The position numbers and the translations under genes were made by a program. The notes beneath the pieces are model-generated. The model saw only the letters and a list, made by a program, of their open reading frames with translations. It was not told the DNA's origin and searched no databases. From assembly GCF_014204915.1 (NCBI RefSeq), contig NZ_JACHMH010000001.1, forward strand, positions 7,837,501 to 7,901,500: DNA of 64,000 nucleotides, in the 5' to 3' direction. Below, piece by piece: positions 28,222-45,174 of this stretch. Numbering within the stretch: the stretch's first letter is position 1; each line of letters begins with the position of its first letter. The stretch comes from Crossiella cryophila. GTDB taxonomy: Bacteria; Actinomycetota; Actinomycetes; Mycobacteriales; Pseudonocardiaceae.

Positions 28222-28240
28222 CTTGCCTGCCCCGGCCGCG

Positions 28241-28363: not shown

Positions 28364-28458
28364 GACTGGCACCTCTCCGTGGTTGCGGCGGGAATACCCC
28401 GTAGGCGGTGAGTCGAATCCGCGGGCCTGGGCGGTGTCACCACTCCGGGGGACAGCGC

Positions 28459-28480
28459 CCCTACCGACCGGTCGGTAGGG
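28459..28480. promoter_or_regulatory. 22-bp perfect palindrome, TetR-operator-like
   Basis: The core CTACCGACCGGTCGGTAG is extended by two further paired bases on each side, giving 22 bases of perfect symmetry. It sits between the minus-strand micro-ORF/monooxygenase unit and the plus-strand ANT(6)-like gene, 42 bases from the GTG of the latter. It is the most perfect member of the dispersed palindrome family and is best placed to be a real operator. Confidence 0.55.
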
Positions 28481-28522
28481 AGACGGAGGTCGCTGTTGCC
28501 GCGGCCCGGGTAGCGTGGCTTT

Positions 28523-29335: not shown

Positions 29336-29345
29336 CCCCTGCCCC

Positions 29346-29500
29346 ACAACGGCCAACACTCCGTACGAGAACGGCCAACACTCCGGGAGAAGGAACGGCG
29401 AGCAGCCCTCCTCCGGAGTGTTGGCCGTTCCGGACGGTGTGTTGGCCGATCTGGGACGGTGTGTTGGCCGTTGTGGGATGGCAGGTGGGCGTTGTGGGGC
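29346..29500. repeat. repeat hairpin array A: inverted 22-bp units around AACGGCCAACAC
   Basis: Two direct units (AACGGCCAACACTCC at 29348 and 29370, 22 bases apart) are followed by inverted units with GTGTTGGCC at 29418, 29439 and 29461 and a degraded one near 29481. The halves can pair into one long hairpin with CTCCGG/CCGGAG near the apex. It fills the space between the convergent ANT(6)-like and PLP-enzyme genes. The same unit builds array B at 42535-42700. The 22-base period rules out coding. Confidence 0.85.
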
Positions 29501-29531
29501 GGGGGGCGGAGTGGTGGGGGGTGGGGGTGGG
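29496..29531 (+). other. dense G-run (possible G-quadruplex) at the end of array A
   Basis: GGGGCGGGGGG, then GGGGGG, GGGGG and GGG runs within 36 bases, with short loops. This satisfies the usual four-run quadruplex pattern on the plus strand. It directly abuts the stop codon of the minus-strand PLP-enzyme gene. Confidence 0.6.
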
Positions 29532-30677
29532 TTAGTTGGGGGATTTCAGGCCTGCGCCGGAGAGGGCGAGGGTTAGGTTGGGGGTGGTTAGGTGGGGGGT
29601 GGCGGTGGTCCAGGAGGGGGTGGTGGGGGCGGTGGCGGTGCGGGCGGCGGTGATGGCTGCCCAGCAGACCGCTGAGGTGGGTTCGACGTAGAAGCCTGCC
29701 GCGGCCAGTTCGGTGCGGGCCTTGAGGACCTGGTCGTCGGTGACGCCCAGGATGGTGCCGCCGGTGTCGGCTACCGCTGCCAGGATGGCTTCGCCGCGGG
29801 CCGGTTCGGCGATGGCGATGCCCTCGGCCTTGGTGGGGATCGGGGTGATGGTGGCGGGGCCGGGGGCGCCCGCGTCAGCCGCCGTGGCCAGGGGGGCGCA
29901 GTTGGCGGACTGGACGCCGATGATGGTGGGGAGCTTGGGGATCAGGCCCTGGGCGAGGAGTTCGCGGAAGCCGAGGTAGGCGCCCAGGAGCAGGGTGCCG
30001 TGGCCTACCGGGAGGACGACGGTGTCCGGCATGCCCTGTTCCCACAGCTCGAAGGCGAAGGTCTTGGTGCCGTGCAGGAAGTACGGGTGGAACATGTGGC
30101 TCGCGTAGCTGGCGTCGGGGGCCTCGGCGGCGACCTTTGCCGCGCGGGCGGCGTCCTCGCGGTTTCCCTCGATCAGGTGGACGTTGGCGCCGTGGGCGCG
30201 CATCTGGCCGAGTTTGCCGGGTGAGGTGCTCGCGGGCACGTAGATCTCGCAGGGGATGCCGATGCGGGCGGCGTAGGCCGACAGCGCCGTGCCCGCGTTG
30301 CCACTGCTGTCGGCGATCAGGCGGCGGACGCCCAGCAGGTGGGCCAGGGTGGCCAGCATGACCGCGCCGCGGTCCTTGAAGGACAGGGTCGGGGACAGGT
30401 ATTCGAGCTTCACGCGGGCGTCGGGCAGGCCGACCGCCGGGACCACGGGGGTCATGCCCTCACCCAGGCTGACCTGGGGCAACTCCGGCACCGGCAGGGA
30501 CTCGGCGTAGCGCCACAGGGTGGCGGGGCGGGTGGCCAGTTCGGACCGGCTGGGCAGCTTGGCGCCGAAGTCGGCGACGTCCAGGACACCGCCGCACGGG
30601 CAGAGCCAGACCAGGCTGTCCACCGGGAACTCGGTGGCACAGCGGGAACAGCGCAGCGGCGGCAACTGGTGGGCCAC
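29532..30677 (-). CDS. threonine-synthase-like PLP-dependent enzyme
   Basis: 381 residues from a GTG with GGAG upstream. An N-terminal zinc-ribbon-like pair, CSRCATEF and CPCGG, precedes the fold-type II PLP core: SPTLSFKDRGAVM holds the Schiff-base Lys, SSGNAGTALSAYA the phosphate-side Asn loop and LPVGHGTLLLG the Gly-rich phosphate loop. This matches threonine synthase and close relatives such as cysteate synthase. It is divergent from a YheO/DauR-like regulator, which suggests a catabolic or specialised role rather than core threonine synthesis. The last 30 codons are low-complexity (TATAPTTPSWTTATP) in a patch of extreme G-over-C skew on the plus strand. Confidence 0.85.
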   Translation of the reverse strand: MAHQLPPLRCSRCATEFPVDSLVWLCPCGGVLDVADFGAKLPSRSELATRPATLWRYAESLPVPELPQVSLGEGMTPVVPAVGLPDARVKLEYLSPTLSFKDRGAVMLATLAHLLGVRRLIADSSGNAGTALSAYAARIGIPCEIYVPASTSPGKLGQMRAHGANVHLIEGNREDAARAAKVAAEAPDASYASHMFHPYFLHGTKTFAFELWEQGMPDTVVLPVGHGTLLLGAYLGFRELLAQGLIPKLPTIIGVQSANCAPLATAADAGAPGPATITPIPTKAEGIAIAEPARGEAILAAVADTGGTILGVTDDQVLKARTELAAAGFYVEPTSAVCWAAITAARTATAPTTPSWTTATPHLTTPNLTLALSGAGLKSPN

Positions 30678-30719
30678 GTTTTTCTCCTCCACGATTGGAC
30701 TGGACTGATCGTCTAGAAA

Positions 30720-30739
30720 ACTTGGACAGATTGTCAAGT
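30720..30739. promoter_or_regulatory. inverted repeat between the PLP-enzyme gene and its divergent regulator
   Basis: ACTTGGAC (30720-30727) and GTCAAGT (30733-30739) form an imperfect dyad, ACTTG-AC/GT-CAAGT. It lies in the 77-base divergent promoter, 16 bases before the regulator start. It is the natural place for autoregulation by the YheO-type protein. Confidence 0.4.
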
Positions 30740-30754
30740 CCGGTTTAGGCTGGG

Positions 30755-31384
30755 GTGGTGAGCGACACGATGGACCGCGCGGCCGACGACCTGTTCGACT
30801 CGGTGCGCCCGCTGGTCGACGGCCTGGCCGCCACCTTCGGCCCCACCGCCGAGATCGTCCTGCACGACTACCGCACACCCGAGGCGAGCGTGGTCGCGAT
30901 CAGCGGCTCGGTGACCGAACGGCACGTCGGTGGCGCGATGAGTGAGATCGGGCTGGGCCTGCTCGCCGCGGGCGCCGAGGCCGAGGATCGGCTCAACTAC
31001 CTCACCCGCACCCCGGACGGCCGCCTGCTGCGCTCCTCCACCATGCTGCTTCGCCTGCGCGGCAAGGTGATCGGCGCGTTGTGCGTCAACCTGGACGTCA
31101 CCGCGCTGCGCCAGGCCGCCGACACCCTCGCCGGTCTGGCCGGTCCGCTGGAACCCGCGCCGGTCACCGTGTTCTCCGACGATGTGGACCAGGTGGTGGA
31201 CGCGGTGATCGCCGAGGAGGGCGGCTGCGACCGCACCGACCGGGCCGACCGCCGCCGGATCATCGCCGCGCTGGACCGGCGCGGGGTGTTCGCGGTGCAG
31301 CGCTCGGCCGCCAGGGTCGCGGAGTACCTGGGTGTCTCGCGGGCCACGCTGTACAACGACCTGACCAAGGTGCGGGCCCGATGA
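30755..31384 (+). CDS. YheO/DauR-type transcriptional regulator
   Basis: 209 residues. The N-terminal PAS-like YheO domain (FGPTAEIVLHDYRTPEASVV, then LRSSTMLLRLRGKVIGALCVN) is followed by a C-terminal helix-turn-helix (FAVQRSAARVAEYLGVSRAT). This is the layout of DauR, which senses D-amino-acid-related signals. Start choices are GTG 30755, GTG 30758 or ATG 30770; the last has GGTGAG at good spacing, so the true protein may be five residues shorter. Divergent from the PLP enzyme, which it probably regulates in response to an amino-acid-like ligand (inference). Confidence 0.83.
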   Translation: MVSDTMDRAADDLFDSVRPLVDGLAATFGPTAEIVLHDYRTPEASVVAISGSVTERHVGGAMSEIGLGLLAAGAEAEDRLNYLTRTPDGRLLRSSTMLLRLRGKVIGALCVNLDVTALRQAADTLAGLAGPLEPAPVTVFSDDVDQVVDAVIAEEGGCDRTDRADRRRIIAALDRRGVFAVQRSAARVAEYLGVSRATLYNDLTKVRAR

Positions 31385-31553
31385 CGTTGCCGCGCAACCG
31401 ATCCACTCCGCCGGACGCGCACCACAGGGCCGGGGGCGATTACGCCGAAGGGCCCACCGCGTGCCCGGCGATCGGGCTACCCTGGCAAGATCTGGCCTCG
31501 GCCTGACCGGTGTGCCGGCCGGCCGGGACGAACACCGATCGGGGAGGCTGCGG

Positions 31554-32648
31554 GTGACCTGGGAAGACCGTGTGCTGGGCTGCATGCTGGGCGGCGCCAT
31601 CGGCGACGCGCTGGGCGCGGACGTGGAGTTCGAGTCGATCAGCTCGATCCGGCGGCGGCACGGCGCGGACGGCCTCACCGACCTGGTCGCCGCCTACGGC
31701 AAGGTCGGCGCGATCACCGACGACACCCAGATGACCCTGTTCACCATGGAGGGCATGGTCCGGGCGCATGTGCACCAGCGCCGGCACGGGGCCACCGATC
31801 CGGTGCCGTTCCTGCTCTCGGCCTACCAGCGCTGGCTGCACACCCAGGGCTACCCGTGGGCCGACGCCATGGGGTCACTCGCGCAGGCGCACCCCCAACC
31901 GGACGGTTGGTTGATCCGCGAGCCGGACCTGTTCGACCGCCGCGCCCCCGGCAAGACCTGCATCCGCGCGCTGGAGGACATCGGCCGCGGCCAGGCGCCG
32001 GGCTCGTTCACCAACAAAATCAACAACTCCAAGGGCTGCGGCGGCGTGATGCGCGCGGCCCCGGTGGCCTTGTGGGGCAACGATCCGGCCGAGGTGTTCC
32101 GGATCGCCGCGGCCGGCGCCGCGCTCACCCACACCCACCCCAGCGGCTACCTGTCCGCGGGCTGCCTCGCGGTGATGGTGTGGGCGCTCTTCCACGGCGC
32201 GCACATCAACGTGGCCATCGACAAGGCCGAGCAGATCCTGCGCGGCTACGACCAGCACGAGGAAACCCTCGAAGCCATCGAGGGCGCGGTCCGTCTTGGC
32301 GGGCCGATCGACTCGACCACGCCGGAGCGGATCGAACGCGAACTGGGCGGCGGCTGGGTCGGCGAGGAGGCCCTGGCGATCGGGCTCTACGCGTTCCTGC
32401 ACGGCGGCGGCGAGTTCCGGGAGACCATGCGGGTCGCGGTCAACCACACCGGGGACAGCGATTCCACCGGCGCGATCGCCGGGAACCTCTTCGGTGCGGC
32501 GCACGGGATGTCCGCGCTGCCCAAGGACTGGCTGGACAAACTGGAACTCCGCGCGGCGACCGAGCTGTTGAGCCGGGACGCCGTCGCGGAGTTCAGCGCG
32601 AACCCGCCCACCTCGAGCGGGTTCCTGCACTGCTATCCCACCTGGTGA
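31554..32648 (+). CDS. ADP-ribosylglycohydrolase (DraG/ARH-like) family protein
   Basis: 364 residues from a GTG behind GGGGAGG. The start, VLGCMLGGAIGDALGADVEF, and AITDDTQMTLFTMEG give the first metal-binding acidic triplet; KGCGGVMRAAPVAL, THTHPSGYLSAGCLAVM and VNHTGDSDSTGAIAGNL give the second. This is a complete di-magnesium ADP-ribosyl hydrolase fold. The substrate could be ADP-ribosylated protein, nucleic acid or a small molecule. No ADP-ribosyltransferase is visible nearby, so pairing cannot be assigned. It stands alone on the plus strand, with the DUF1304 gene convergent two bases away. Confidence 0.9.
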   Translation: MTWEDRVLGCMLGGAIGDALGADVEFESISSIRRRHGADGLTDLVAAYGKVGAITDDTQMTLFTMEGMVRAHVHQRRHGATDPVPFLLSAYQRWLHTQGYPWADAMGSLAQAHPQPDGWLIREPDLFDRRAPGKTCIRALEDIGRGQAPGSFTNKINNSKGCGGVMRAAPVALWGNDPAEVFRIAAAGAALTHTHPSGYLSAGCLAVMVWALFHGAHINVAIDKAEQILRGYDQHEETLEAIEGAVRLGGPIDSTTPERIERELGGGWVGEEALAIGLYAFLHGGGEFRETMRVAVNHTGDSDSTGAIAGNLFGAAHGMSALPKDWLDKLELRAATELLSRDAVAEFSANPPTSSGFLHCYPTW

Positions 32649-32649
32649 C

Positions 32650-33012
32650 TCAGCCGGCCACGAACACCGCGGCCAGCGCCAGCACCGAGGGCACCACCTG
32701 GACGTAGAGGATCTTCTTGCTGGCCGTGGCCGCGCCGTAGACCCCGGCGACGAACACGCACACCAGGAAGAAGATCTTCGCCTGGTAGCCGACCGGGTCG
32801 GCCGCGATCAGCGACCAGATCAGGCCGGCGGCCAGGAATCCGTTGTACAGGCCCTGGTTCGCGCCCAGGGTCTTGGTCGCCTCGGCGAACTCGGGGGTGA
32901 GCCCGAACGCCTTCTGGCCCCGTGGGGTGGTCCACAGGAACATCTCCAGCACCAGGATGTACACGTGGATCAGCGCGACCAACCCGACCAGGATCCCTGC
33001 CACGACACCCAT
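32650..33012 (-). CDS. DUF1304-family membrane protein
   Basis: 120 residues with four hydrophobic segments (VAGILVGLVALIHVYILVLE; FLAAGLIWSLIA; IFFLVCVFVAGVYGA; VVPSVLALAAVFVAG). HVYILVLEMFLW and LGANQGLYNGFLA are typical DUF1304 sequences. The ATG at 33012 has AAGGAG. It lies 61 bases downstream of the CYP102-type gene on the same strand and may share its transcript. Function unknown; members are predicted small integral membrane proteins. Confidence 0.8.
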   Translation of the reverse strand: MGVVAGILVGLVALIHVYILVLEMFLWTTPRGQKAFGLTPEFAEATKTLGANQGLYNGFLAAGLIWSLIAADPVGYQAKIFFLVCVFVAGVYGAATASKKILYVQVVPSVLALAAVFVAG

Positions 33013-33073
33013 CAGAACTGCTCCTTCATCATTCCACTGTGGACAGCCATTGTGCGCTTGACCCGGGGGTTCG

Positions 33074-36000
33074 TCATCCCGAGTAGACGTCTTCGATGTA
33101 ACGGTCCCGCGCGATGAGATCCGCCAGCCAGGCCTCGGCGGCGTTCTGGTCGCCGCCGGTGTGCTTGCGGTGCAGGTCGAGGAAGGCCGCGCGCACGCCG
33201 GGGGCCATCCGGGCGCCGTCGCCGCAGACGTAGACCGCCGCGCCGCTGTCCAGAAGCTGCCACACCTGCTCGCCCTCGGCGGCGATGCGGTGCTGCACGA
33301 ACTGCACGTCCTCCACCGGCGCCTGGGAGAACGCGGGCCGCATCGAGACGACTCCGGCGGCCTCAGCCGCTTCCAACTCCGACCGGTGCAGGTAGTCGAC
33401 CTCGGGGTGGTCGCAGCCGAAGTAGCACAGCGCCGGGCCGGTGTTGCCGACGGCGAGGCGGTCGGCGATGGCACCGCGGAACGGGGCCAGGCCGGTGCCC
33501 GCGCTGATCATGATCACCGGGCGGTCGGCGGCCGGGTCGAGCCGGAAGGCCTCCCGGCAGGGCTGGACCTTGGCCAGCACGGTGTCACCGGGGCGCAGAC
33601 CGGTCAGGTAGGCCGAGCCGATGCCGCGGAAGGTGCCGTCAGCGCACCGGGACGGGGCTTCCAGCAGGGACACCATCAGGTCGACCGCACCCGGCTGGCT
33701 CGCGGCCGAGGAGGAGATCGAGTAGTGCCGGGGGCGCAGCGGCGGCAGCAGTTCCAGGGCGATGTCCAGGGTCAGCTGACAGGCCGGGTTGACCTCCAGG
33801 AGGTCCAGCACGCTGCGGCCATCCGGTTGCGCGGCAAGGGCTTCCAGGGCCTTGCGCTCGGGCGGGCAGGGGTTGATCGCGGCCAGCGCGGTGAGCTGGG
33901 CGGGGGTGGCCGGGTCCTGCAGTTCGACGAAGTGGGTGAGCAGGGCGCGGGCGGTGACCGGTCGGTCGATGCCCAGCGCGCCGCGGCCGGGGCGGCGGTC
34001 GGCGATCTCCAGGACGTCGTCCAGGCCGAGCTGGAGGAGCTGGGCGGCGCGTTCGACCTGGGCCGGGTCGTTGGCCGGCAGCACGGTGAGGTGGTCGGCG
34101 GTGCGGTAGGTCACGCCCTCGGGCAGCGCGATCCGCAGGAACCGCTTGGACCGGCCCAGCGGGTGGTCCAGCTCGGCCAGGTCGGCGGTGTCCAGGACGG
34201 TCATCGGCAGCACCTCGTGCCGGGCGTCGCGGGCCGCGGTGACCGGGCCGGACAGCGTGCGCACCGCGTACCTCGGACCGTCGGTGGTGTCCACTGTGGA
34301 CACCGCGTCCGGGTCGCCGTACTCGGCCAGCAGCGCGGTCCAGAGCTGTTCGCTCCAGTCGGTGACCGCGCCGGCCAGGTCGCCGGAGGCGTCCGCCTCG
34401 CCGCGGTCGAGCAGGCGGGTGGCGCCGAGTTCGGTGAGGCGGGCGTCCATGGCGGTGGGCACGTGCATGTAGGTGGCGGCCCAGTTGCGGTCGCCGACGC
34501 CGAGCAGCGCGTACCGGACGCCGTCCAGGGAGCCGGGTTCGGCTTGGTTGAGCCAGTTCCAGAACTCGGCGGCGTCGTCGGTCGGGCGCCCGTTGTAGGA
34601 TGCCGCGACGATCACCACTGGGGAGCCGGCCGGCAACGACCGAGTGGCGACGTCCAACGGGTCAACGGAAACGTCGCAGCCGTGCTGCTCCCCTGCCTCG
34701 GCGATCTCCTTGGCCAGGGTGCGGCAGGTGCCCAGGTTGGAGCCGTGCAACACGGTGAGCCTGGTGCCCTGCCGCATCCGCCCGGCCGACTTCGCGGTGG
34801 CGTGCGCGGTCTCGGCGACCGCGGGCTTGCGCCGGTCGGCGCTGGTGCGGCGGGCCAGGCCCAGGTGCAGGCCCTCGGGCTTGAGGGTCAGCGTCTCCTT
34901 GACCTTGAGCTGGTAGTTGTCCTGGTCCAGGAAGCGGAAGCGGTGGATCAGCAGGCCCAGCAACAGGGTCGCCTCGTGCAGGGCGAACTGGCGGCCGATG
35001 CAGGCCCGCTCGCCGGTGCCGAAGGGCTTGAACGCGTGCACCGGGCGCTCCCGCTCGCGTTCGGGGCTGAAGCGCTCCGGGTCGAAGGACTCCACGTTGT
35101 CGCCCCACACCGGATCCCGGTGCAGCATCGGGGTCAGCACCAGCATCGCCTCGCCCTTGGCCACCGGGTACTTGCCGCCGATCTCGGTGTCCCGCAACGC
35201 CTGGCGGGCGAAAATGGCCGCGGTCGGCCACAGTCGCAGCGTCTCGTTGAGGATCTGCCGCACATAGCGCAGCTTGCCGATGTCCTCGAAACTCGGGTCA
35301 GGGTCCTCGACATCGCCCCAGAGCGCGTCCACCTCGGCCTGGGCGCGGGCCAGCACGGCCGGGTTCTTGGTCAGGAAGTGCAGCGCGAAGGACAGCGTGC
35401 CGGAGGTGGTCTCGTGCCCGGCGATCAGGAAGGTGACCACCTGGTTGCGGATGTTGACCTCGTCCAGGGTCTCCCCGGACTTCGGGTGCGGGGCGTTGAG
35501 CATCAGGCCCAGCAGGTCGTCGGTGCTGGTGTCACCACTGGCGATCCGCTCCTTGATCACCTCGTCCACCACGCCGTTGAGGAAGGCCACATCCGCGGCG
35601 AACTGCTCGTTTCCCTTGCGGTAGAGGAAGTCCAGGCCGGGCACGTGCCGGTTCTTGGCCTGGGCGAAGGCCAGGCCGCGGACCAGCGCGGTGACGAACG
35701 GGTGGGTGTCCTCGCTCTCGAAGGAGCCGAAGTCGTAGCCGAAACCGGCCAGGCCGATGGTGTCCAGGGTCAGCTTGGTCATGTCCCCCGAAACGTCCAC
35801 AGTGGACTGTCCGGTGTGGCCGTCCCAGGAGTTGATCAGCTTGCGGGCCACCGCGAGCATGGTCGGGTGGTAGGTGCGCATCGAGGACATCGCGAAGGCG
35901 GGCAGCAGGATGTCGTGCGCCTTGGCCCAGTTGGGCTCGTCGTTGAAGGCGGTGAACAGGCCGTCGCCGGTGAGGCCGCGGATGGTGACCAGGGAGTTGC

Positions 36001-36238
36001 CCACGTGCTTGGCGAAGCGATCCTCGTCGGCGAGTTCGGCGACCAGGTCGGCGCCGGAGACGAAGACGACCTCGGTGTCGAAGAACTTGCGGGTGAAGAT
36101 CGGGCCCAGCGCCCTGGCGTCGTCCATCGCGCTCTGCACCAGGCGGTCCGACGGCGCGCCGAGCACATCGCCGATGACCGGCAGGCGGTTGGCCGGGTGC
36201 GGCAGTTCGACCCGGTCGGTGGTGTGTGCAGTGCCCAT
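33074..36238 (-). CDS. self-sufficient cytochrome P450-NADPH reductase fusion, CYP102 (P450 BM3) type
   Basis: 1054 residues, the length of P450 BM3. The heme domain (about 1-460) starts LPHPANRLPVIGDV and contains FLIAGHETTSGTLSF (oxygen-activation helix), ETLRLWP (ExxR) and FGTGERACIGRQFALHEA (heme Cys). A linker leads to a flavodoxin-like FMN domain (VLHGSNLGTCRTLA). The FAD/NADPH reductase domain has RHYSISSSA (FAD), MISAGTGLAPFRG (NADPH) and VYVCGDGARMAPGV. Family members hydroxylate fatty acids below the carboxyl end. A palindrome (36321-36338) and a PAS/LuxR regulator are divergent, so expression is probably inducible. Two GTCCACWGTGGAC sites lie within the gene. Confidence 0.95.
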   Translation of the reverse strand: MGTAHTTDRVELPHPANRLPVIGDVLGAPSDRLVQSAMDDARALGPIFTRKFFDTEVVFVSGADLVAELADEDRFAKHVGNSLVTIRGLTGDGLFTAFNDEPNWAKAHDILLPAFAMSSMRTYHPTMLAVARKLINSWDGHTGQSTVDVSGDMTKLTLDTIGLAGFGYDFGSFESEDTHPFVTALVRGLAFAQAKNRHVPGLDFLYRKGNEQFAADVAFLNGVVDEVIKERIASGDTSTDDLLGLMLNAPHPKSGETLDEVNIRNQVVTFLIAGHETTSGTLSFALHFLTKNPAVLARAQAEVDALWGDVEDPDPSFEDIGKLRYVRQILNETLRLWPTAAIFARQALRDTEIGGKYPVAKGEAMLVLTPMLHRDPVWGDNVESFDPERFSPERERERPVHAFKPFGTGERACIGRQFALHEATLLLGLLIHRFRFLDQDNYQLKVKETLTLKPEGLHLGLARRTSADRRKPAVAETAHATAKSAGRMRQGTRLTVLHGSNLGTCRTLAKEIAEAGEQHGCDVSVDPLDVATRSLPAGSPVVIVAASYNGRPTDDAAEFWNWLNQAEPGSLDGVRYALLGVGDRNWAATYMHVPTAMDARLTELGATRLLDRGEADASGDLAGAVTDWSEQLWTALLAEYGDPDAVSTVDTTDGPRYAVRTLSGPVTAARDARHEVLPMTVLDTADLAELDHPLGRSKRFLRIALPEGVTYRTADHLTVLPANDPAQVERAAQLLQLGLDDVLEIADRRPGRGALGIDRPVTARALLTHFVELQDPATPAQLTALAAINPCPPERKALEALAAQPDGRSVLDLLEVNPACQLTLDIALELLPPLRPRHYSISSSAASQPGAVDLMVSLLEAPSRCADGTFRGIGSAYLTGLRPGDTVLAKVQPCREAFRLDPAADRPVIMISAGTGLAPFRGAIADRLAVGNTGPALCYFGCDHPEVDYLHRSELEAAEAAGVVSMRPAFSQAPVEDVQFVQHRIAAEGEQVWQLLDSGAAVYVCGDGARMAPGVRAAFLDLHRKHTGGDQNAAEAWLADLIARDRYIEDVYSG

Positions 36239-36320
36239 CTCGAATCCCCGATTTCGCTGTGCGCGCTTGTCCTGTCGAGATCAACAGTGCCAGCGCTGAT
36301 CCACAGTCTCGGACCACAGC

Positions 36321-36338
36321 ACTACACAATCTTGTAGT
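36321..36338. promoter_or_regulatory. palindrome ACTACA-N6-TGTAGT in the CYP102 divergent promoter
   Basis: Perfect 6-bp arms (36321-36326 and 36333-36338), 22 bases before the regulator start and 83 before the P450 start. It is AT-richer than the surrounding DNA. The position fits an operator for the divergent PAS/LuxR regulator or another repressor. Confidence 0.5.
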
Positions 36339-36359
36339 CCTCGGCTACGTTTCCTCCTT

Positions 36360-37751
36360 GTGAGCGATCCGCTGTCCCGGCTCGGTCTGGCCGAACTGCT
36401 GGCCGCCTCCGGCGCGCTGGCCTCGCTGCGCGACCGGACAGGGCGGTTCACCTGGGCCTCGCCGAGTTACCGCGAGCTGATCGGGGCCGGCGAGGCCGAG
36501 ATCGCGGGCCGCACCCTGGCCGACTGGCTGGGTCCGGAACTGGCCGCGCCGGTGGACGCCGAGGACGAACGGGTGTGGCGGACCGGGGAGCCGGTGCGCT
36601 GGCGGCCCAGCGATCCGGTGCCGACCGCGCTGCCGGGGCGGTCCGGCAGGCAGGTGTGGCTGGCCGGGCACAAGCTGCTGCTGCACCCGGCGGACGGGGA
36701 ACCGTTGCTGGGCATGGTCGCGGTGGACGTCGGGGACTGGCTGGCCGACCGGGCCGCGCTGGCCGCGGCCGAGCAGCGGCTGGCCCAGTTCGTCGCGCAC
36801 GTGCCGGTGCTGGCCATGATCACCGACGCGCAGCACCGCTACGTCTGGTTCGGCGACGCCGGGCACCGGCTGCTCGACCGACCGGTCGGTGAGGTGGTCG
36901 GGCGGACCGTGCCGGAGGTGCTGCCGCCGGACCTGGCCGAGCAGTCGGTGGAGCAGAACGCGGCGGTGCTGCTGTCCGGGGCGGCCCGGCAGGTGCGGAT
37001 GCGCACCGAGCAGGACGGGCGGGAGATCGAGTGGTCCGGCTACCGGTTCCCGCTGCCGCAGCCGCAGGGCCCGCCGCACGTGGGCACCATCCTGTTCGAC
37101 GTCACCGAGTTCCGCACCGCCCAGCGGGACGCGGCGTTGTGGCGCAACCGGTTCCTGGCGCTGCTGGACCGGATCTCGGTGCCTGCCGCGGTCTGCCTGC
37201 CCGACGGCACGCTGAGCATGCTCAACCCGGAGTTCGCCGCCCTGTTGGGCAGCAGTCCGGGCCGGTTGCACGGCACCGTGCTGACCACCCTGATGCAGGC
37301 CCGTGACCAGGAGAAACACGATCGGCTGATGCGCGAGTTCGCGTCCGGGGCGCGGGGGCGGCGACGGCTGGCGGTGCGCTGGAAGCCGCGGCGCGGGAGT
37401 GTGGAACGCACCGGCGAGCTGACCCTTCAGCTGGTCAAGGACGTGGAGACCGGGTTGCTGCTGACCCTGGCCGCCGACCCGGAGCAGCCGCCGCCGGCCG
37501 AGGTGTCGCCGGAAATCAGTTCCCGGGAGGCGGAGATCATCACTAGGGTCGCCGCCGGGGACACCACCGCGGCCATCGCGGCCGCGGTCGGCCTGACCCC
37601 GGACGGGGTGACCTACCACGTCACCCGGCTCTGCCAGCGGTTCGACGCGGCCAACCGCACCGCGCTGGTGGCCAGGGCGTATGCCACCGGGGTGCTGGAC
37701 GCCTCGGTGTGGCCGCCCGCGCTGCGGGAGAACGGAGTTGCCCATGCATGA
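36360..37751 (+). CDS. PAS-domain LuxR-type transcriptional regulator
   Basis: 463 residues from a GTG. Three PAS-like segments are suggested by FTWASPSYRELIGAGEAEIAGR, AMITDAQHRYVWFGDAGHRLL and ISVPAAVCLPDGTLSMLNPEF. The C-terminal LuxR helix-turn-helix reads ISSREAEIITRVAAGDTTAAIA and then LTPDGVTYHVTRLCQRF. There is no kinase or receiver domain, so it probably binds its ligand directly through a PAS pocket. Divergent from the CYP102-type gene, which makes control of that gene likely; the ligand may be a fatty acid or another P450 substrate (inference). Its stop overlaps the GNAT gene start by eight bases. A 14-base ACCG-CGGT palindrome lies inside it (36877-36890). Confidence 0.82.
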   Translation: MSDPLSRLGLAELLAASGALASLRDRTGRFTWASPSYRELIGAGEAEIAGRTLADWLGPELAAPVDAEDERVWRTGEPVRWRPSDPVPTALPGRSGRQVWLAGHKLLLHPADGEPLLGMVAVDVGDWLADRAALAAAEQRLAQFVAHVPVLAMITDAQHRYVWFGDAGHRLLDRPVGEVVGRTVPEVLPPDLAEQSVEQNAAVLLSGAARQVRMRTEQDGREIEWSGYRFPLPQPQGPPHVGTILFDVTEFRTAQRDAALWRNRFLALLDRISVPAAVCLPDGTLSMLNPEFAALLGSSPGRLHGTVLTTLMQARDQEKHDRLMREFASGARGRRRLAVRWKPRRGSVERTGELTLQLVKDVETGLLLTLAADPEQPPPAEVSPEISSREAEIITRVAAGDTTAAIAAAVGLTPDGVTYHVTRLCQRFDAANRTALVARAYATGVLDASVWPPALRENGVAHA

Positions 37752-38490
37752 GGAACTGCTCGACGGCGCGGGCCGGGTGGTGGCCACCTACGAGCGCGGC
37801 ACCCGGATGGAGCTGCCCTACGCGGACGAGCTGCGCCCGGTGGACATCGCGCCGGACGACCTGGTCAAGCTGCTCTTCGCCGAGCGCAAGGGCTGGGTGT
37901 TCAGCGCCGCACCGGAGATCTGCCAGGTGGCCAAGGCCAGTGGCGGCACGGTGGTCCGGCACGCGCACTGCTACAGCTACGACCTGCGCACCCAGCCGGT
38001 CGATCCTGGCTGGGCGGCCGGGCCGCTGCCGGAGGGGCTGCGGTTCAGCGAGTTCAGCGCGACCCTGGACGAGATCTACCGCGCCTACGAGCTGGCTTTC
38101 CCGCCTGGCCACGTGGATCACGTGCTGGACCCCGAGAGCGAGCGGCGGAACTTCGCCCGGCTGCTGGCCGGGGAGGTGCTCGGGCCGGTGCTGCCGTGCA
38201 GCAGCCTGGTGTGGGACGGCGAGACGGTGGTCGGCGTGATCGTGGTCAACGACCGCGAGGGCGAGCCGCCGCTGGGCGGGCCGTGGATCTCCCAGGTCTA
38301 CCGGGATCCCGCGCCGCGCTATCGCGGGCTGGGCACGCTGCTGCTGCGCCGGGCACTGGCGCTGGGCGCGCGGGCCGGGTTGCCTGCGATCGGGCTGGCG
38401 GTGACGGAGGGGAATCCGGCGCGGTGGGTGTACGCGAAGGCGGACTTCCAGCACGTCGAGGAGTCCATGACGGTGCTCATCCCGGACTGA
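37744..38490 (+). CDS. GNAT-family N-acetyltransferase with an extra N-terminal domain
   Basis: 248 residues. The C-terminal half is a GNAT fold: VVGVIVVNDR, then the acetyl-CoA loop DPAPRYRGLGTLLLRRALALG (R/Q-x-x-G-x-G/A pattern) and LAVTEGNPARWVYAKADF. The first 90 residues (MHEELLDGAGRVVATYERG, RHAHCYSYDLRTQP) do not match a domain I know. The ATG at 37744 lies inside the end of the PAS/LuxR gene, so the two are translated together. Acceptor substrate unknown. Confidence 0.82.
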   Translation: MHEELLDGAGRVVATYERGTRMELPYADELRPVDIAPDDLVKLLFAERKGWVFSAAPEICQVAKASGGTVVRHAHCYSYDLRTQPVDPGWAAGPLPEGLRFSEFSATLDEIYRAYELAFPPGHVDHVLDPESERRNFARLLAGEVLGPVLPCSSLVWDGETVVGVIVVNDREGEPPLGGPWISQVYRDPAPRYRGLGTLLLRRALALGARAGLPAIGLAVTEGNPARWVYAKADFQHVEESMTVLIPD

Positions 38491-38534
38491 CCCTCTAGAC
38501 TGGCCGGGTTGGCACCGAACTGAGGAGGTCGGCC

Positions 38535-38927
38535 GTGCGCGAGCACCGGGTCCCGCCTCGCTCCGTGCTGCTCCGGCTCATCCAGGCGGTGCTGCTCACC
38601 GCGCTGCTGGTGCTGGTGGCCGCACCGGTGGCCACGGCCGCGCCGATCACGTTGGCGGACAACGAGGTCGCGGTGTCCACCCATCTCGGTGGGTCCTCTT
38701 CGGACCACCGGGACACCCGGCTCAACCACGCCGACCGGGTGGCCATCAACAACCCGCACGCGCACCAGCACTTCGCCGAGCTGCCAGCCGGGTTGCCGGT
38801 GGCCAGGCCCGCGTTCCCTCGGCCCAGCGTCGACTTCGCCACCGATCAGAACGCCCTCGACGCCGCGGACGGGGTCGGGCCGCGGCAGGCGCCCACCAGA
38901 GGGCCACCGTCCACTCCAGGAATCTGA
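38535..38927 (+). CDS. small secreted or membrane-anchored protein of unknown function
   Basis: 130 residues from a GTG with GAGGAGG-like sequence upstream. A hydrophobic signal (LIQAVLLTALLVLVAAPVATAA) is followed by a polar, His/Asp/Pro-rich tail (SSDHRDTRLNHADR, NNPHAHQHF). No Cys in the mature part. The His-rich pattern might bind metal, but this is speculative. It precedes secDF by 51 bases on the same strand. Confidence 0.6.
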   Translation: MREHRVPPRSVLLRLIQAVLLTALLVLVAAPVATAAPITLADNEVAVSTHLGGSSSDHRDTRLNHADRVAINNPHAHQHFAELPAGLPVARPAFPRPSVDFATDQNALDAADGVGPRQAPTRGPPSTPGI

Positions 38928-38978
38928 CCGTCACGCCGTCCTTTGTGGACGGACATCGATCCTGGAGGAACCTCACCC

Positions 38979-41285
38979 ATGTCACGCCCTTCGGCGTGGC
39001 GGGGACTTCTCGTGCGTGGGCTGCTGTCCCTCGCCGTGCTCGTCACCGCCACCTATCTCGTGCTCAGCACCGCCCCGCGCCTTGGTCTGGACCTGCGCGG
39101 CGGCACCCAGATCGTCCTTGAGGCCAAGTCCACCCCGACCGTCACCGCCGACGCCAACGCCACCGACCGGGCCCTGGAGGTGATCCGCCGCCGGGTGGAC
39201 AGCCTTGGCGTGGCCGAGCCGGGGCTGGTGCGATCCGGGGAGAACCGGATCATCGTCGAACTGCCCGGCGTGCAGGACCCGAAAGAGGCGGTCGCGGTGC
39301 TCGGCCGGACCGCCCAGCTGACCATGCACCCGGTGCTCGGGGTGGTGCCGCCGGGCACGCCGCCCGCTCCGGGCGAGAAGGTGCTGCCGGATGAGTCCGG
39401 GGCGCCGTTGCGGCTGGCCGCGGCCGCGCTGACCGGGGAGAACGTGGCCGGGGCGAACTCGGGGCCGGTGCCGCAGGGGGTGGGCTGGCAGGTCGGGATC
39501 GACTTCTCCGGGCCGGGCGGGGAGAGCTGGCGGAAGCTGACCGGGCAGGCGGCGTGCTCCGCGCCGGGTGACCCGAAGCGCCGGGTGGCGATCGTGCTGG
39601 ACGACAAGGTGATCTCCTCGCCGCAGGTGGACCCGTCGGTCGGGTGCCAGGCCGGGATGGGCGGCGGCAACACCCGGATCACCGGCAAGTTCACCCAGGC
39701 CGAGGCCAACGAGCTGTCCCTGCTGATCAGCGGCGGCGCGCTGCCGGTGCCGGTGGAGGTCCTGGAACAGCGGACGGTGGGCCCGACCCTGGGCGCGCAG
39801 GCGATCGAGGCGAGTGCCTGGGCCGCGCTGATCGGCGTGGGCATCACCGGGTTGTTCCTCACCTTCGTCTACCGGTTGGTCGGTTTCCTCGCGGTGCTGG
39901 CGCTGGCCGGGTACGCGGCGCTGTCCTACTCCTCGCTGCTGGCGATCGGGGCGACACTGACCTTGCCGGGGCTGGCGGGCCTGGTGCTCGCGGTGGGTAT
40001 GGCGGTGGACGCGAACGTGCTGGTGTTCGAGCGGGCCCGGGAGGACTTCGCGAGCAGATCCGGGCTGCCGCCACGGCAGCGGTTGAGCCGGGCGATGGAG
40101 GGCGGGTTCAAGGGCGCGGTGTCGGCGATCGCGGACTCCAACGTCACCACGCTGCTGGCGGCCGGGTTGCTGTTCTTCCTGGCCAGCGGGCCGGTGCGCG
40201 GGTTCGGCGTGACGCTGTCGGTGGGTGTGCTGGCCTCGCTGTTCAGTGCGCTGGTGCTGACCAGGGTGCTGATGATCGCGGTGTGCGACAACGAGTTCGT
40301 GGCCAAACGGCCGTGGCTGACCGGTTTGGGCAGCCTTGGCCGGGTGCGGACCTGGCTGACCGGGCGGTTCAGTGGCCTGTACGCCAACCCGAAGCGCTGG
40401 CTGCTGGCCACCGGGGCGATCACGCTGCTGATCGCGCTGGGGCTGGTGATCCGGGGGCCGGAGCTGGGCGTGGAGTTCACCGGCGGCAGGCTGATCGAGT
40501 ACACCACACAGCAGCAGGTCAACCCCGATGCGGCGCGGGATGCGTTGCAGGCGGCCGGTTTCGACCGGGCCACGGTGTCCACCAGCGGTGAGAAGGAACT
40601 GACGATCAAGACCGCGCCACTGGACGAGACCCAGGCGGCCAAGGCCAAGGAGGTCGTGGCCGGGCTCGGCGGCGGGGCGGAGCAGGTGCGCAGTGAGCTG
40701 ATCGGGCCGAGCCTGGGTGACGAGTTGCGCACGAAGGCGTTGCTGGCCTTGGCGATCGCGGTGGCGGCGCAGCTGGCGTACCTGGCGATCCGGTTCGACT
40801 GGCGGCTGGGGGTGGCCACGGTGGCGGCGTTGTTGACGGATGTGGTCGTGTTGCTGGGGTTGTTCTCCTGGCTGGGGATCACCATGGACGCGGTGTTCCT
40901 GGCGGCGTTGCTGACGGTGATCGGTTATTCGGTGAACGACTCGGTGGTGGTCTTCGACCGGGTTCGCGAGCTACGCGGGTTGCGGCCCAAGGAGCATTTC
41001 CACCAGGTCGCGGGTACCGCGGTGCTGCAGACCTTGCCGCGCACGGTGAACACGGGTGTGGGTGTGCTGGCGGTGTTGCTGTGCTTGCTGTTCCTGGGTG
41101 ACGGGTCGCTGGCCGACTTCGCGCTGGCGGTGCTGGTGGGTGTGGTCGCGGGCACGATCTCCACGGTGGCCACGGCTTCGCCGCTGGCGGTGTTGCTGGA
41201 CCGGAAGTCGCCGGGGGCCGGGCGGCAGCGGGCCAAGCCCCGGCAGCAGACGCGGCGGCGGGTGGATTCCGGGGCGGTGGTGTGA
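38979..41285 (+). CDS. secDF: fused protein-export membrane protein SecDF
   Basis: 768 residues combining SecD and SecF. The SecD half starts with a membrane segment and LGLDLRGGTQIVLEA, followed by VIRRRVDSLGVAEPGL and IIVELPGVQDP in the periplasmic-side P1 region, then six membrane segments with LVLAVGMAVDANVLVFER. The SecF half contains LGVEFTGGRLIEY and VIGYSVNDSVVVFDRVRELR. Both carry the conserved Asp regions that couple the proton gradient to the late steps of Sec export. The ATG at 38979 has TGGAGGAA. A single fused protein outside the usual yajC-secD-secF neighbourhood suggests a second, accessory SecDF. Confidence 0.92.
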   Translation: MSRPSAWRGLLVRGLLSLAVLVTATYLVLSTAPRLGLDLRGGTQIVLEAKSTPTVTADANATDRALEVIRRRVDSLGVAEPGLVRSGENRIIVELPGVQDPKEAVAVLGRTAQLTMHPVLGVVPPGTPPAPGEKVLPDESGAPLRLAAAALTGENVAGANSGPVPQGVGWQVGIDFSGPGGESWRKLTGQAACSAPGDPKRRVAIVLDDKVISSPQVDPSVGCQAGMGGGNTRITGKFTQAEANELSLLISGGALPVPVEVLEQRTVGPTLGAQAIEASAWAALIGVGITGLFLTFVYRLVGFLAVLALAGYAALSYSSLLAIGATLTLPGLAGLVLAVGMAVDANVLVFERAREDFASRSGLPPRQRLSRAMEGGFKGAVSAIADSNVTTLLAAGLLFFLASGPVRGFGVTLSVGVLASLFSALVLTRVLMIAVCDNEFVAKRPWLTGLGSLGRVRTWLTGRFSGLYANPKRWLLATGAITLLIALGLVIRGPELGVEFTGGRLIEYTTQQQVNPDAARDALQAAGFDRATVSTSGEKELTIKTAPLDETQAAKAKEVVAGLGGGAEQVRSELIGPSLGDELRTKALLALAIAVAAQLAYLAIRFDWRLGVATVAALLTDVVVLLGLFSWLGITMDAVFLAALLTVIGYSVNDSVVVFDRVRELRGLRPKEHFHQVAGTAVLQTLPRTVNTGVGVLAVLLCLLFLGDGSLADFALAVLVGVVAGTISTVATASPLAVLLDRKSPGAGRQRAKPRQQTRRRVDSGAVV

Positions 41286-41286
41286 G

Positions 41287-42129
41287 TCAGAGCAGGCCGG
41301 TGAGCAGGAACGGCGCGTTGATGACCCCGTGCACGAGGAGCAGGACGGGGAAGTTGCGGTAGCGCGCCCAGAGGTAGCCGAGGAACATCCCGCGGACGCC
41401 GTGGCCCGCCAGCACGGTGAGCACGCCGAGGCCGACGCCGTGGTGGGACTGGATCCCGATGTGCCACACCGCCCAGAGCACGGCGGCCAGCACGATCCCC
41501 GGCCATAGTCCCAGCACGGCCTCGAGCCGGGTTTGCAGCCAGCGGCGGAAGAAGAGTTCTTCGATGACCGCGTTGAAGAGGAAGACGACCAGGATGGTCT
41601 GGACATCCGGGATGAGGCGGGATTCGGGGTAGGCGCCCAGGAGATAGGTGAGGCCGAGGAAGACGGCGGCGGGTACGAGCGGGGCGATCCAGCGGGTGGG
41701 GGTCATGGGGCACCAGCGTTCGCGCTTGCCGCCGTTTCGGCGCAGGTACCAGAAGAGGGTGAGCGGGATCGCGATCAGCAGGACTGGTTTGGCGATCAGG
41801 AACCAGAGGGGGGCGCCGGGTAAGACCATGACGATGGCGAAGGCGGTGGCGAGGGCGGTGAGCCAGGCGGCTTCGAGGCGGGTGCGGGGTGGGTCTAGGC
41901 GGAACGGGTTCTCCCACTTGACGGTGGGTGGGGTGAAGCGGGTGGCGACTATGGCCAGTAGGGCGGGGACGGTGAGGATCCAGAGGGGGAGGGTGCCGTC
42001 GTGGTCGGCGGTGTAGTGGACGCTGAAGTGGCCGGTCAGGAGGAGGAGGAGCAGGCAGCCGAAGATTGTGGTGAGGCAGCCGACCAGGATGAAGCCTCCG
42101 AGCCGGGCCCAGGATCGCCGTTGCCCCAT
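41287..42129 (-). CDS. CPBP-family intramembrane metalloprotease
   Basis: 280 residues with about eight hydrophobic segments. The CPBP/Abi signature is present: NAVIEELFFRRWLQ (EExxxR), AVWHIGIQSHH (His) and LVHGVINAPF (His/Asn). Family members are membrane-embedded proteases or putative bacteriocin-immunity proteins. It is convergent with secDF, one base apart. The ATG at 42129 borders the long intergenic region with hairpins. The plus strand here is markedly G-over-C skewed. Confidence 0.85.
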   Translation of the reverse strand: MGQRRSWARLGGFILVGCLTTIFGCLLLLLLTGHFSVHYTADHDGTLPLWILTVPALLAIVATRFTPPTVKWENPFRLDPPRTRLEAAWLTALATAFAIVMVLPGAPLWFLIAKPVLLIAIPLTLFWYLRRNGGKRERWCPMTPTRWIAPLVPAAVFLGLTYLLGAYPESRLIPDVQTILVVFLFNAVIEELFFRRWLQTRLEAVLGLWPGIVLAAVLWAVWHIGIQSHHGVGLGVLTVLAGHGVRGMFLGYLWARYRNFPVLLLVHGVINAPFLLTGLL

Positions 42130-42309
42130 GCTGCCAACATATCTGGGTGGAGGTGGGTGTGGTGGTGGGGCCATCTTTTTCGCTCTTGGCTGTTGCGTTG
42201 TTGGCCTCTGGTGCTGAGGTACCCGAGCGACGATCAAGGGCGTCCTCGCCGGACGGGCAGGAATCAAAGGATGGGGGGGAAAATCAAAGGCAGAGAGCAG
42301 TGCTCGTGT

Positions 42310-42461
42310 GCGGTTCCCCATCCCCGTCAGCCTTCCGATACCAAACCACATCCTGGGCGCGCAGACCCCTGCGGTTGGGTGGCTAGGGCGGCGGCGGGTT
42401 GCGGGTCCGCGCGCCCAGGATGCGGTGTGTCCTCTCCAGGCTGACGGGGATGGGGAACCGC
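42310..42461. repeat. 152-bp long hairpin with 24-bp perfect terminal inverted repeats
   Basis: The outer arms at 42310-42333 and 42438-42461 are perfect 24-base inverted repeats beginning GCGGTTCCCCATCC. Inner arms CATCCTGGGCGCGC (42349-42362) and GCGCGCCCAGGATG (42409-42422) pair perfectly, and GACCC/GGGTC can close the apex. Almost the whole element can fold on itself. It could be a MITE-like remnant or a structured RNA. No open frame fits, and no clear target-site duplication is visible. Confidence 0.8.
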
Positions 42462-42534
42462 TCAGGGGATGTTTGAAAAGCCACCCCGTCTGCTTGTGTG
42501 CGGGCTTCGCCCGGTCGCGATCGCCCAAGGCGTA

Positions 42535-42700
42535 CAAGAACGGCCAACGTGGCGTACGACAACGGCCAACACGCCGTACCAGTACGGCCAACACGCGCGG
42601 AGGGTTGAAACCCTCGTCGGCGTGTTGGCCGTTGTCGTACGGTGTGTTGGCCGTTCTTGTACGGTGTGTTGGCCGTTGTGGGACGTCGGGTTGGCACTTG
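42535..42700. repeat. repeat hairpin array B: 22-bp units, three direct then four inverted
   Basis: CGGCCAAC occurs at 42541, 42563 and 42585, exactly 22 bases apart. Then GTTGGCC occurs inverted at 42624, 42646 and 42668 and, degenerate, at 42690, again 22 apart. Units read roughly GTACNANAACGGCCAACACNCC. A perfect 7-bp hairpin, GAGGGTT-GA-AACCCTC (42600-42615), caps the structure between the two halves. The rest of this 778-base intergenic region (42130-42309, 42462-42534, 42701-42895) holds nothing I can name. Confidence 0.88.
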
Positions 42701-42907
42701 TTGTACGCGGGTCGCTCGGAACCGTGCCGCCGGCTCGCCGGGGCTTCGCCTGCTCGCCCGTGACAACCGCTCGGCCCCCAGCCCCCGGCCTCCGGGCTTT
42801 GCCCGCGCTCCGCGATCGTCACCGCCCCTCCCCCAACCCCCTCCCCACCGCATGTCCCGCTATCCGGGGATACGGCACCGGCCGGTTCTCGATCTATGGT
42901 GGACCCC

Positions 42908-45047: not shown

Positions 45048-45174
45048 GCCCATCCCCCAGCCGCTGGTCGGGCGACCACGGTATTTCCTCCCGCGTACCG
45101 CCACAACCGAGTGCGGTAGCGTCCGCCGGGAAGAAAACGACCAGACATCCGGCCAGTTCGAGGGAGAGCCTTCC

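What the first reader, a model, noticed from the sequence alone, without database searches (positions are those of the whole stretch)
29346..42700. A two-member family of long hairpin repeats built from inverted 22-bp units (arrays A and B)
Array A (29346-29500) and array B (42535-42700) both consist of direct copies of an AACGGCCAACAC-centred unit followed by inverted copies. In B the period is exactly 22 bases throughout (direct at 42541, 42563, 42585; inverted at 42624, 42646, 42668, 42690), and a perfect 7-bp hairpin caps the middle. This is not a simple terminator: it has multiple units per arm, it is dispersed, and it sits once between convergent and once between divergent genes. It could be a dispersed intergenic element, a protein-binding array with two-turn helical spacing, or a structured RNA. 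I know of no described family with this layout.
Basis: seen in the sequence. Interest (0 to 1): 0.75.

Follow-up and report, generated by a model that had tools for sequence, protein, structure and literature searches.

The report
22-base repeat arrays at gene ends
The two odd hairpin repeats belong to a large family of repeat arrays that sit just behind the stop codons of genes, mostly where two genes run towards each other, and whose 22-base building block can differ between closely related bacteria while its spacing stays the same.

Summary
In detail: arrays A and B are direct runs of a 22-bp unit facing inverted runs. The "two-member" reading is wrong. The genome (a Crossiella, Pseudonocardiaceae, 10.06 Mb) holds 423 adjacent unit pairs (control 0), about 200 arrays by extrapolation. 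In 1.6 Mb sampled, 22-bp-lag arrays occupy 26 of 68 convergent, 12 of 282 co-directional and 0 of 168 divergent gaps; 30 of 35 convergent arrays lie within 25 bp of a stop. B is a divergent exception, beside a second dispersed element (H). Sites are polymorphic: array A is absent (9 bp between stops) in G002 and SN42. In sister S99.2, ten compared sites all carry units of this kind, but four are essentially of another 22-bp unit, found as 157 pairs there and 2 here; S99.2 keeps type I units too. Arms and caps do not covary, so a selected RNA hairpin is not supported. The linker instead keeps four bases in 369-371 of 372 units. Some other genera have 22-bp GTAC-phased arrays with other cores. 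Best reading: a REP/BIME-like repeat family of gene 3' ends, with no RAYT found beside it, whose unit is probably a protein-recognised DNA word. New variant of a known kind.

The parts
29348..29381 (+). Array A, direct arm: two 12-bp cores (29348-29359, 29370-29381) 22 bp apart
29382..29417 (.). Array A, central spacer (cap), with a decayed third direct unit (3 mismatches) at 29394
29418..29472 (-). Array A, inverted arm: cores at 29418-29429, 29439-29450, 29461-29472
42202..42530 (+). Element H: dispersed noncoding element with a long imperfect inverted repeat (arms about 42312-42370 and 42402-42459, read by eye); the 40 best-scoring places in the genome include this one and 39 others at 83-96% identity; abuts array B
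42539..42594 (+). Array B, direct arm: cores at 42539-42550, 42561-42572, 42583-42594, period 22
42595..42621 (.). Array B, cap, with the perfect 7-bp stem GAGGGTT/AACCCTC
42622..42699 (-). Array B, inverted arm: cores at 42622-42633, 42644-42655, 42666-42677 and a decayed unit (3 mismatches) at 42688-42699, period 22
28523..29335 (+). Flanking gene of array A, 3' end towards the array (PF04439 streptomycin adenylyltransferase family)
29532..30692 (-). Flanking gene of array A, 3' end towards the array (PF00291 PALP; threonine-synthase-like by my reading)
41287..42129 (-). Flanking gene of H + array B, 5' end towards the element (PF02517 Rce1-like)
42896..43720 (+). Flanking gene of array B, 5' end towards the array (PF12697 alpha/beta hydrolase; GC3 0.70, missed by my gene finder)

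Best explanation
A and B belong to a REP/BIME-like family of dispersed repeats that accumulates at gene 3' ends, chiefly between convergent genes. The typical element is a palindromic array of up to five 22-bp units per arm around a cap that is mostly 25-28 or 33-37 bp long. The unit is probably a DNA word recognised by a sequence-specific protein (GGCCAAC-n5-GT[A/C]C-n-A), spaced about two helical turns apart. Shown: genome-wide copies, 3'-end placement, presence/absence between species, copying of unit blocks between loci, a different unit at some orthologous sites of the sister species, no arm covariation, no RAYT beside arrays in this genome. Inferred: arrays spread and are homogenised by copying between loci (gene conversion, or a trans-acting enzyme that recognises the unit), persist where insertion does least harm, and as a by-product or selected effect end or insulate converging transcription.
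For: Copies: 209+214 unit pairs, control 0/0; 94+99 triple-unit matches, control 0/0. Placement: 22-bp-lag arrays in 26/68 convergent, 12/282 co-directional, 0/168 divergent gaps of 90-1500 bp; Fisher p 1.5e-16 convergent against divergent; 30 of 35 convergent arrays within 25 bp of a stop, median 12. Indel: 196 bp between the stop codons at array A here, 9 bp in G002 and in SN42/G004. Different unit: of 10 sites compared in G001/S99.2, 4 carry essentially type II units and 1 a mixture; type II pairs 157 in G001, 2 here, 0 in G002-G004, controls 0. Block copying: 46 adjacent-linker coincidences against 12.8 +/- 4.0 shuffled. Motif constraint: G16 371, T17 370, C19 371, A21 369 of 372, with position 13 free and 20 and 22 weakly constrained. 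Same kind elsewhere: three GTAC at 22-bp period match 80 times in G034, 29 in G291, 19 in G166, 15 in G216, 9 in G022, controls 0-1 in these; the two such arrays that I fetched fill gaps between convergent ORFs.
Against: No enzyme or binding protein was found: the one Y1_Tnp match of the genome is a remnant without arrays in its 3.2-kb locus, and no Pfam family matches more than 3 of 76 flanking proteins. I recognised no target-site duplication by eye. Array B lies between divergent genes. Positions 1-12 of the unit are conserved partly because I searched with them; only the linker positions are unbiased. Some of the constraint could reflect recent copying from a limited set of master units (90 distinct linkers among 372). 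S99.2 keeps type I units beside type II (11.0 and 7.0 words per 100 kb in 100 kb), so the unit change there is partial. The gene calls are my own and miss genes of unusual codon usage.
Confidence: 0.6

Rival explanations
1. Bidirectional intrinsic terminators: the RNA hairpin itself is what selection keeps, stopping RNA polymerase from both converging genes.
For: Placement at stop codons of convergent genes; stable folding of both arrays, and of array A on either strand; 70 of 110 distinct arrays are direct-then-inverted.
Against: No compensatory change between arms or in caps; native arms fold slightly worse than swapped arms (-71.6 against -73.1 kcal/mol, 58 of 60 shuffles reach); 26 of 110 arrays are direct-only (some are halves on either side of H); no T-tract terminator was called at either array. 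Actinobacterial terminators can lack T-tracts (recalled), and termination may still be an effect of the hairpin.
Confidence: 0.2
2. Binding arrays of a host DNA-binding protein (nucleoid-associated or roadblock protein) with a chromosome-scale role: arrays mark converging gene ends on the two chromosome arms and are kept away from the origin region.
For: Bipartite, position-specific constraint and 22-bp phasing; 22-bp GTAC phasing recurs with other cores in other genera; none of 52 merged exact triple-unit sites lies within 0.7 Mb of dnaA (expected 7.2, p 4e-4); some sites of the sister species stayed arrays with another unit.
Against: Sites come and go between species, odd for a positioned chromosomal function. 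The origin depletion is not absolute: unit pairs lie at 1.739 and 1.773 Mb, 0.59 and 0.62 Mb from dnaA, and an H copy at 1.666 Mb. Convergent gaps in the 0.8-1.0 Mb sample are short (median 8 bp against 41-52 bp in the array-rich samples), so purifying selection on core gene neighbourhoods could explain it. The terminus depletion is not significant (4 against 8.3, p 0.07).
Confidence: 0.17
3. Classical REPIN: palindromic repeats mobilised by a RAYT (Y1) transposase.
For: High copy number, inverted pairing, 3'-end placement like REPs.
Against: Only one Y1_Tnp match in the genome, partial, with a stop, beside what I read as a TnpB-like ORF, and no array in its locus; the type I unit is not itself a palindrome; no GTAG tag.
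Confidence: 0.02
4. Remnant of a decayed protein-coding gene, simple repeat, or assembly artefact.
For: None found; ORFs run through the arrays in several frames at once, as expected of GC-rich repeats.
Against: Hundreds of unit pairs with conserved positions, intergenic placement, and the same kind of element in other assemblies.
Confidence: 0.01

Closest known systems
REP / BIME elements (GTAG- and CGTC-tagged repetitive extragenic palindromes; REPINs)
   Same: High-copy, dispersed, intergenic; mostly between convergent or unidirectional genes and within about 20 bp of 3' ends; inverted pairs that can fold; species-specific families; CGTC REPs also lack a dedicated transposase (PMC3733652: abstract and passages; PMC3116915: passages).
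   Different: Type I unit not itself palindromic and untagged by GTAG or CGTC; up to five units per arm at a 22-bp period with GT[A/C]C in the linker; found in Pseudonocardiaceae, whereas the main text of PMC3733652 has 0 occurrences of streptomyces, actinobacter or frankia; no RAYT beside arrays.
Bidirectional intrinsic terminators
   Same: Stable hairpin just after the stop codons of converging genes.
   Different: Multi-unit tandem arms, no T-tract called at A or B, no covariation, another unit at some orthologous sites of the sister species.
DNA uptake sequences (Neisseria DUS, Haemophilus USS) (recalled, not tested)
   Same: Genome-specific short word, hundreds of copies, often as inverted pairs at gene ends.
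   Different: Single words of about 10-12 bp, not 22-bp-phased arrays; no evidence of uptake here.
Plasmid iterons (recalled, not tested)
   Same: Direct repeats of about 22 bp phased on one face of the helix, bound by a protein.
   Different: Iterons mark one replication origin; these are dispersed at many gene ends and palindromic.

Membership tests
REP/BIME (general) | High copy number, extragenic | tested here: met
   54 of 57 sampled arrays overlap no called gene
REP/BIME (general) | Located at 3' ends, between convergent or unidirectional genes | tested here: met
   array B is an exception
REP/BIME (general) | Each repeat is itself a 20-40-bp palindrome | tested here: not met
   Type I unit AACGGCCAACACnSSGTMCnAS has no long self-palindrome; opposite units pair. 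The type II unit in G001 is near-palindromic.
RAYT-REPIN | RAYT (Y1 transposase) gene flanked by the repeats | tested here: not met
   (own genome only)
GTAG- or CGTC-tagged REP | Unpaired GTAG or CGTC tag at one end of a stem | tested here: not met
   Linker reads GTAC or GTCC in nearly all of 372 units. CGTCC occurs in some linkers but is not at the foot of a unit hairpin.
Intrinsic terminator | GC-rich stem followed by a T-run | tested here: not met
   five terminator-like sites in 26000-45500 (shuffled mean 6.8), none at A or B
Structured RNA family | Compensatory base changes in the stem | tested here: not met
Structured RNA family (Rfam) | Match to a known family | tested here: not met
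   0 matches at gathering score in the window
Host DNA-binding-protein array | Specific binding of a protein to the unit | not testable with these tools
   Only indirect: position-specific constraint
MITE / DNA transposon end | Target-site duplication and clean empty site | tested here: inconclusive
   Unoccupied sites exist (9 bp between stops in G002 and SN42) but no duplication was recognised by eye

The most novel reading that the evidence does not exclude
An undescribed repeat system of Pseudonocardiaceae: arrays at converging gene ends built from a lineage-specific 22-bp 'dialect'. A fast-evolving DNA-recognising protein (transposase-like or nucleoid-like, not a RAYT) drives the array population towards a new unit sequence, caught half-way in S99.2 (sister species at 91-96% DNA identity), while sites, 22-bp period and GTAC phase remain: a bacterial counterpart of concerted satellite evolution that shapes transcription ends on the chromosome arms.
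Probability: 0.25. Interest if true: 0.82.

Novelty: new variant of a known kind. Interest (0 to 1): 0.58.

Why it matters
The REP families surveyed in PMC3733652 reside mainly in Proteobacteria, and the GTAG class is tied to RAYT transposases. This family is in an actinomycete lineage, has no RAYT beside it, uses multi-unit 22-bp arms and has a second unit at some orthologous gene ends of a sister species. That makes it a tractable case for how a bacterial genome copies and homogenises many dispersed repeats, and a candidate set of natural bidirectional gene-end insulators in GC-rich hosts. It also bears on assemblies: two contigs of the S99.2 draft end within about 100 bp of array A.

Tried and rejected
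Arm covariation of linkers, units, caps and whole arms: tested and absent. My first impression from array B alone (linkers complementary in a shifted register) did not survive the 89-pair test.

RAYT transposase: one partial Y1_Tnp match, a remnant with no arrays in its locus. A recurrent neighbouring protein: none; the commonest Pfam families match 3 of 76 flanking proteins (88 flanking genes found and 82 expressible as single-locus references, 76 of these submitted).

Rfam: no match in the window. Phage and plasmid origin: 0 exact unit-pair matches in viral contigs; no match of array B in the plasmids collection.

Synteny to G002 over 800 kb collapsed after about 180 kb, so of 32 G000 arrays only the sites at 7833052 and array A, plus one composite site with a different gap in G002 (918 against 1288 bp, no array called there), could be anchored.

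The class-wide survey (four GTACs in a row) was less sensitive than the family survey (7 matches in the own genome against 100), so near-absence outside the family is weak evidence; its control pattern rang 41 times in G347 and 1-2 times in four others. In the family survey 49 of 297 genomes match; 35 of these have a single match, which I did not examine one by one (a few look like true relatives, others are probably chance), and controls are 0-3 except G247 (116) and G290 (12), not followed up.

The calls do not bear that out: S99.2 keeps type I words at 11.0 per 100 kb beside 7.0 type II (own genome 13.8 and 0), and 3 type I pairs in 100 kb (own 123 in 1.6 Mb). I corrected this and lowered the probability of the novel case from 0.30 to 0.25.

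Literature: searches (open-access PMC only; titles and abstract starts seen) listed no paper that I recognised as describing this element. PMC4210621 (Kutzneria albida genome) was only searched for three words. PMC1525189 was seen as abstract and outline, PMC3733652 as abstract, outline and passages, PMC3116915 as passages.

Chromosome-scale depletion: the origin side is significant in one count, chosen after seeing the gap; the terminus side is not. The list used is the 58 exact triple-unit matches, typed into the script by hand. One-mismatch triples do occur nearer dnaA (1,738,844). A second, weak Bac_DnaA match lies at 3.98 Mb (E 9.6e-6) and was not taken as dnaA.
Full report
WHAT IS THERE. 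Array A (29348-29472) and array B (42539-42699) are as described, with B's coordinates two bases lower than given. Each is a run of direct 22-bp units, a cap, and a run of inverted units. The window has 15 matches to the 12-bp core at up to two mismatches, against a shuffled mean of 5.8 and maximum of 12. Both arrays fold strongly as RNA (z -7.4 to -11.2 in four folds). Rfam has no match in the window.

A LARGE FAMILY. The window is part of a 10.06-Mb single-contig genome. Two core units 22 bp apart (one mismatch allowed) occur 209 times on one strand and 214 on the other, with 0 for the reversed control. Scaling by the 57 arrays and 123 such pairs in 1.6 Mb gives about 196 arrays in the genome (an extrapolation, since only the first 100 places were listed). 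The closest relatives by a flanking gene are Crossiella sp. S99.2 (98% protein identity) and SN42 (89%), so I take the genome to be a Crossiella (Pseudonocardiaceae). The four other genomes of the genus that are held all match array B's sequence.

ARCHITECTURE. Among 110 distinct own-genome arrays, 70 are direct-then-inverted, 26 direct only, 6 inverted-then-direct and 8 mixed. Same-strand neighbours are 22 bp apart in 372 cases and 21 bp in 30, of 421 in the twelve commonest spacings. Over 372 units the linker (not used to find them) is nSSGT[A/C]CnAS: G16 in 371, T17 in 370, C19 in 371, A21 in 369, while position 13 is nearly free and positions 20 and 22 only weakly constrained. This looks like a bipartite recognition word rather than a stem.

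NO COVARIATION. If the hairpin were the selected object, nested linkers, units and caps should match within an array better than between arrays. They do not: linkers 6.42/10 against 6.71 (sd 0.13, n=89); units 11.13/12 against 11.19 (n=186; 1961 of 2000 shuffles reach; 4 matched against 157 one-arm-only deviations); short caps -10.6 against -11.2 kcal/mol when halves are swapped (37 caps, 265 of 300 reach); long caps -18.9 against -18.5 (9 caps, 101 of 300 reach); two-unit arms -71.6 against -73.1 when arms are swapped (53 arrays, 58 of 60 reach). If anything, native arms are slightly less complementary than chance, perhaps because perfect long palindromes are unstable (inference).

PLACEMENT. 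In four regions totalling 1.6 Mb (two chosen because dense in arrays, two because sparse), I used my own gene finder and a sequence-blind test (best lag of 12-35 is 22, at least 32 of 44 bases matching). Arrays are in 26 of 68 convergent gaps of 90-1500 bp, 12 of 282 co-directional gaps and 0 of 168 divergent gaps (Fisher p 1.5e-16 convergent against divergent). In G002 (800 kb) the same test gives 3 of 33, 1 of 128 and 0 of 82; in G001 (100 kb) 1 of 5, 1 of 19 and 0 of 10, with a further 2 and 1 at lag 21. Of 35 convergent arrays in G000, 30 lie within 25 bp of a stop codon (median 12); of 19 co-directional arrays, 13 are nearer the upstream stop than the downstream start. Array B is an exception: its right-hand neighbour, an alpha/beta hydrolase with low GC3 (0.70) that my gene finder missed, makes its gap divergent; as called, that gap (1568 bp, co-directional) lay outside the size range of the lag test. 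Other genes of unusual codon usage may have been missed likewise.

TURNOVER BETWEEN SPECIES. Between the stop codons at array A there are 196 bp here, but 9 bp in G002 and in SN42/G004 (aligned blocks), while S99.2/G001 has a smaller array. G002 also lacks the array at 7833052 (27 bp against 639 between anchors). In 100 kb of G001 (91-96% identical in the aligned blocks that flank arrays), the ten own arrays that could be compared (the eleventh, 8028813, lay beyond the fetched end) all face repeat units of this kind: five type I, one mixed, and four (B, 7986094, 8001228, 8005849) essentially a different, near-palindromic unit of the form GAGTTGGCCCAACTCGTACGCC, 7986094 with one type-I-like unit at its edge (the assignment to types is my reading of the printed sequence). 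Pairs of that type II unit number 157 in G001, 2 in the own genome and 0 in G002-G004, controls 0. The change is partial: in 100 kb of G001 type I words are 11.0 and type II 7.0 per 100 kb, against 13.8 and 0 in 1.6 Mb of the own genome and 2.0 and 0 in 800 kb of G002. So two close species use different unit mixtures at the same gene ends while the 22-bp period is kept.

COPYING. Adjacent linker pairs recur between arrays 46 times, against 12.8 +/- 4.0 when shuffled, so blocks of units are copied between loci. A second dispersed noncoding element, H (window about 42202-42530), with its own long inverted repeat, has 40 scored places (of 125 candidates), 39 of them other than the window's at 83-96% identity, and weaker relatives in G001, G002 and G004 but none found in G003. 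In 22 of 30 copies read, H lies between a left-hand inverted unit and a right-hand direct unit within 750 bp. At 7986094 H and type I units lie inside what G001 has as an uninterrupted, mainly type II array, so arrays may be insertion or recombination targets (inference from one site).

OTHER GENERA. A core-blind pattern (three GTAC at 22-bp period) over 297 Pseudonocardiaceae genomes gives clear excess in G000 (100), G003 (41), G001 (36), G002 (19), G034 (80), G291 (29), G166 (19), G216 (15) and G022 (9), with controls 0-1 in these; five more genomes have 2 and 35 have 1; the Crossiella genome G004 has 0. Controls elsewhere are 0-3 except G247 (116) and G290 (12). The cores differ: for example GTACGTTCCGGGCCGGTGAGTC in G034 and GTACGTCCAGGTCCCGCGAGTC in G291. 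The two of these arrays that I fetched (L354, L355) both fill a gap between convergent ORFs, and two arrays of G022 (core AAGCGCCGACAC) run from stop to stop by eye. In a class-wide sample of 246, with a stricter four-GTAC pattern, only two genomes other than the own one match, once each.

CHROMOSOME. dnaA lies at 1.152 Mb. None of 52 merged exact triple-unit sites lies within 0.7 Mb of it (7.2 expected, p 4e-4, a limit chosen after seeing the gap); near the antipode there are 4 against 8.3 expected (p 0.07). Weaker matches come nearer: unit pairs at 1.739 and 1.773 Mb and an H copy at 1.666 Mb. Median convergent gaps in the sampled origin and terminus regions are 8-9 bp against 41-52 bp in the two array-rich regions.

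WHAT IT IS. The family behaves like REP/BIME elements: dispersed, at 3' ends, inverted, lineage-specific. A survey of REPs reports the same placement, within 20 bp of the 3' ends of convergent ORFs, and a class (CGTC) without a transposase (PMC3733652). It is not a member of the RAYT-associated or tagged REP families as defined: no RAYT beside arrays, no GTAG/CGTC tag, and a unit that is not self-palindromic. It works like a REP-type 3'-end repeat; whether its effect is transcription termination, insulation or none is untested. I think the unit is a DNA word read by an unidentified protein, because sequence rather than pairing is conserved; that step is inference.

LIMITS.

Noticed in passing
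window 42202-42530; G000 genome-wide: Element H: a noncoding dispersed element with long imperfect inverted repeats, 40 scored places of 125 candidates, bracketed by outward-pointing array units in 22 of 30 copies; in several copies part of a composite of about 670 bp with further hairpins.
   Followed up: partly
L318, position 9121-9285 (G001:C2): A 165-bp insertion right after a stop codon in S99.2, bounded by GTCGTGTTTGGTGG and its reverse complement, absent from the own genome: looks like a MITE.
   Followed up: no
G247 (genus g21): 116 matches to the reversed control pattern (CATG at 22-bp period, three times): perhaps a CATG-phased relative of the arrays, or an unrelated tandem repeat. 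G347 rings 41 times for the four-fold CATG control.
   Followed up: no
G000:C1:6800204-6800452 (L323): The only Y1_Tnp match of the genome, with a stop inside and what I read as a TnpB-like ORF alongside: an IS605-type remnant.
   Followed up: partly
L355, about 407-481: Centre of an array in G291 carries a second, different unit (about GGCCTGAGCGTGGAATTCAGGA) also repeated at about 22 bp: two unit types nested in one element.
   Followed up: no
window 42896-43720: Alpha/beta hydrolase gene with low GC3 (0.70) in a 71% GC genome: perhaps recently acquired.
   Followed up: partly
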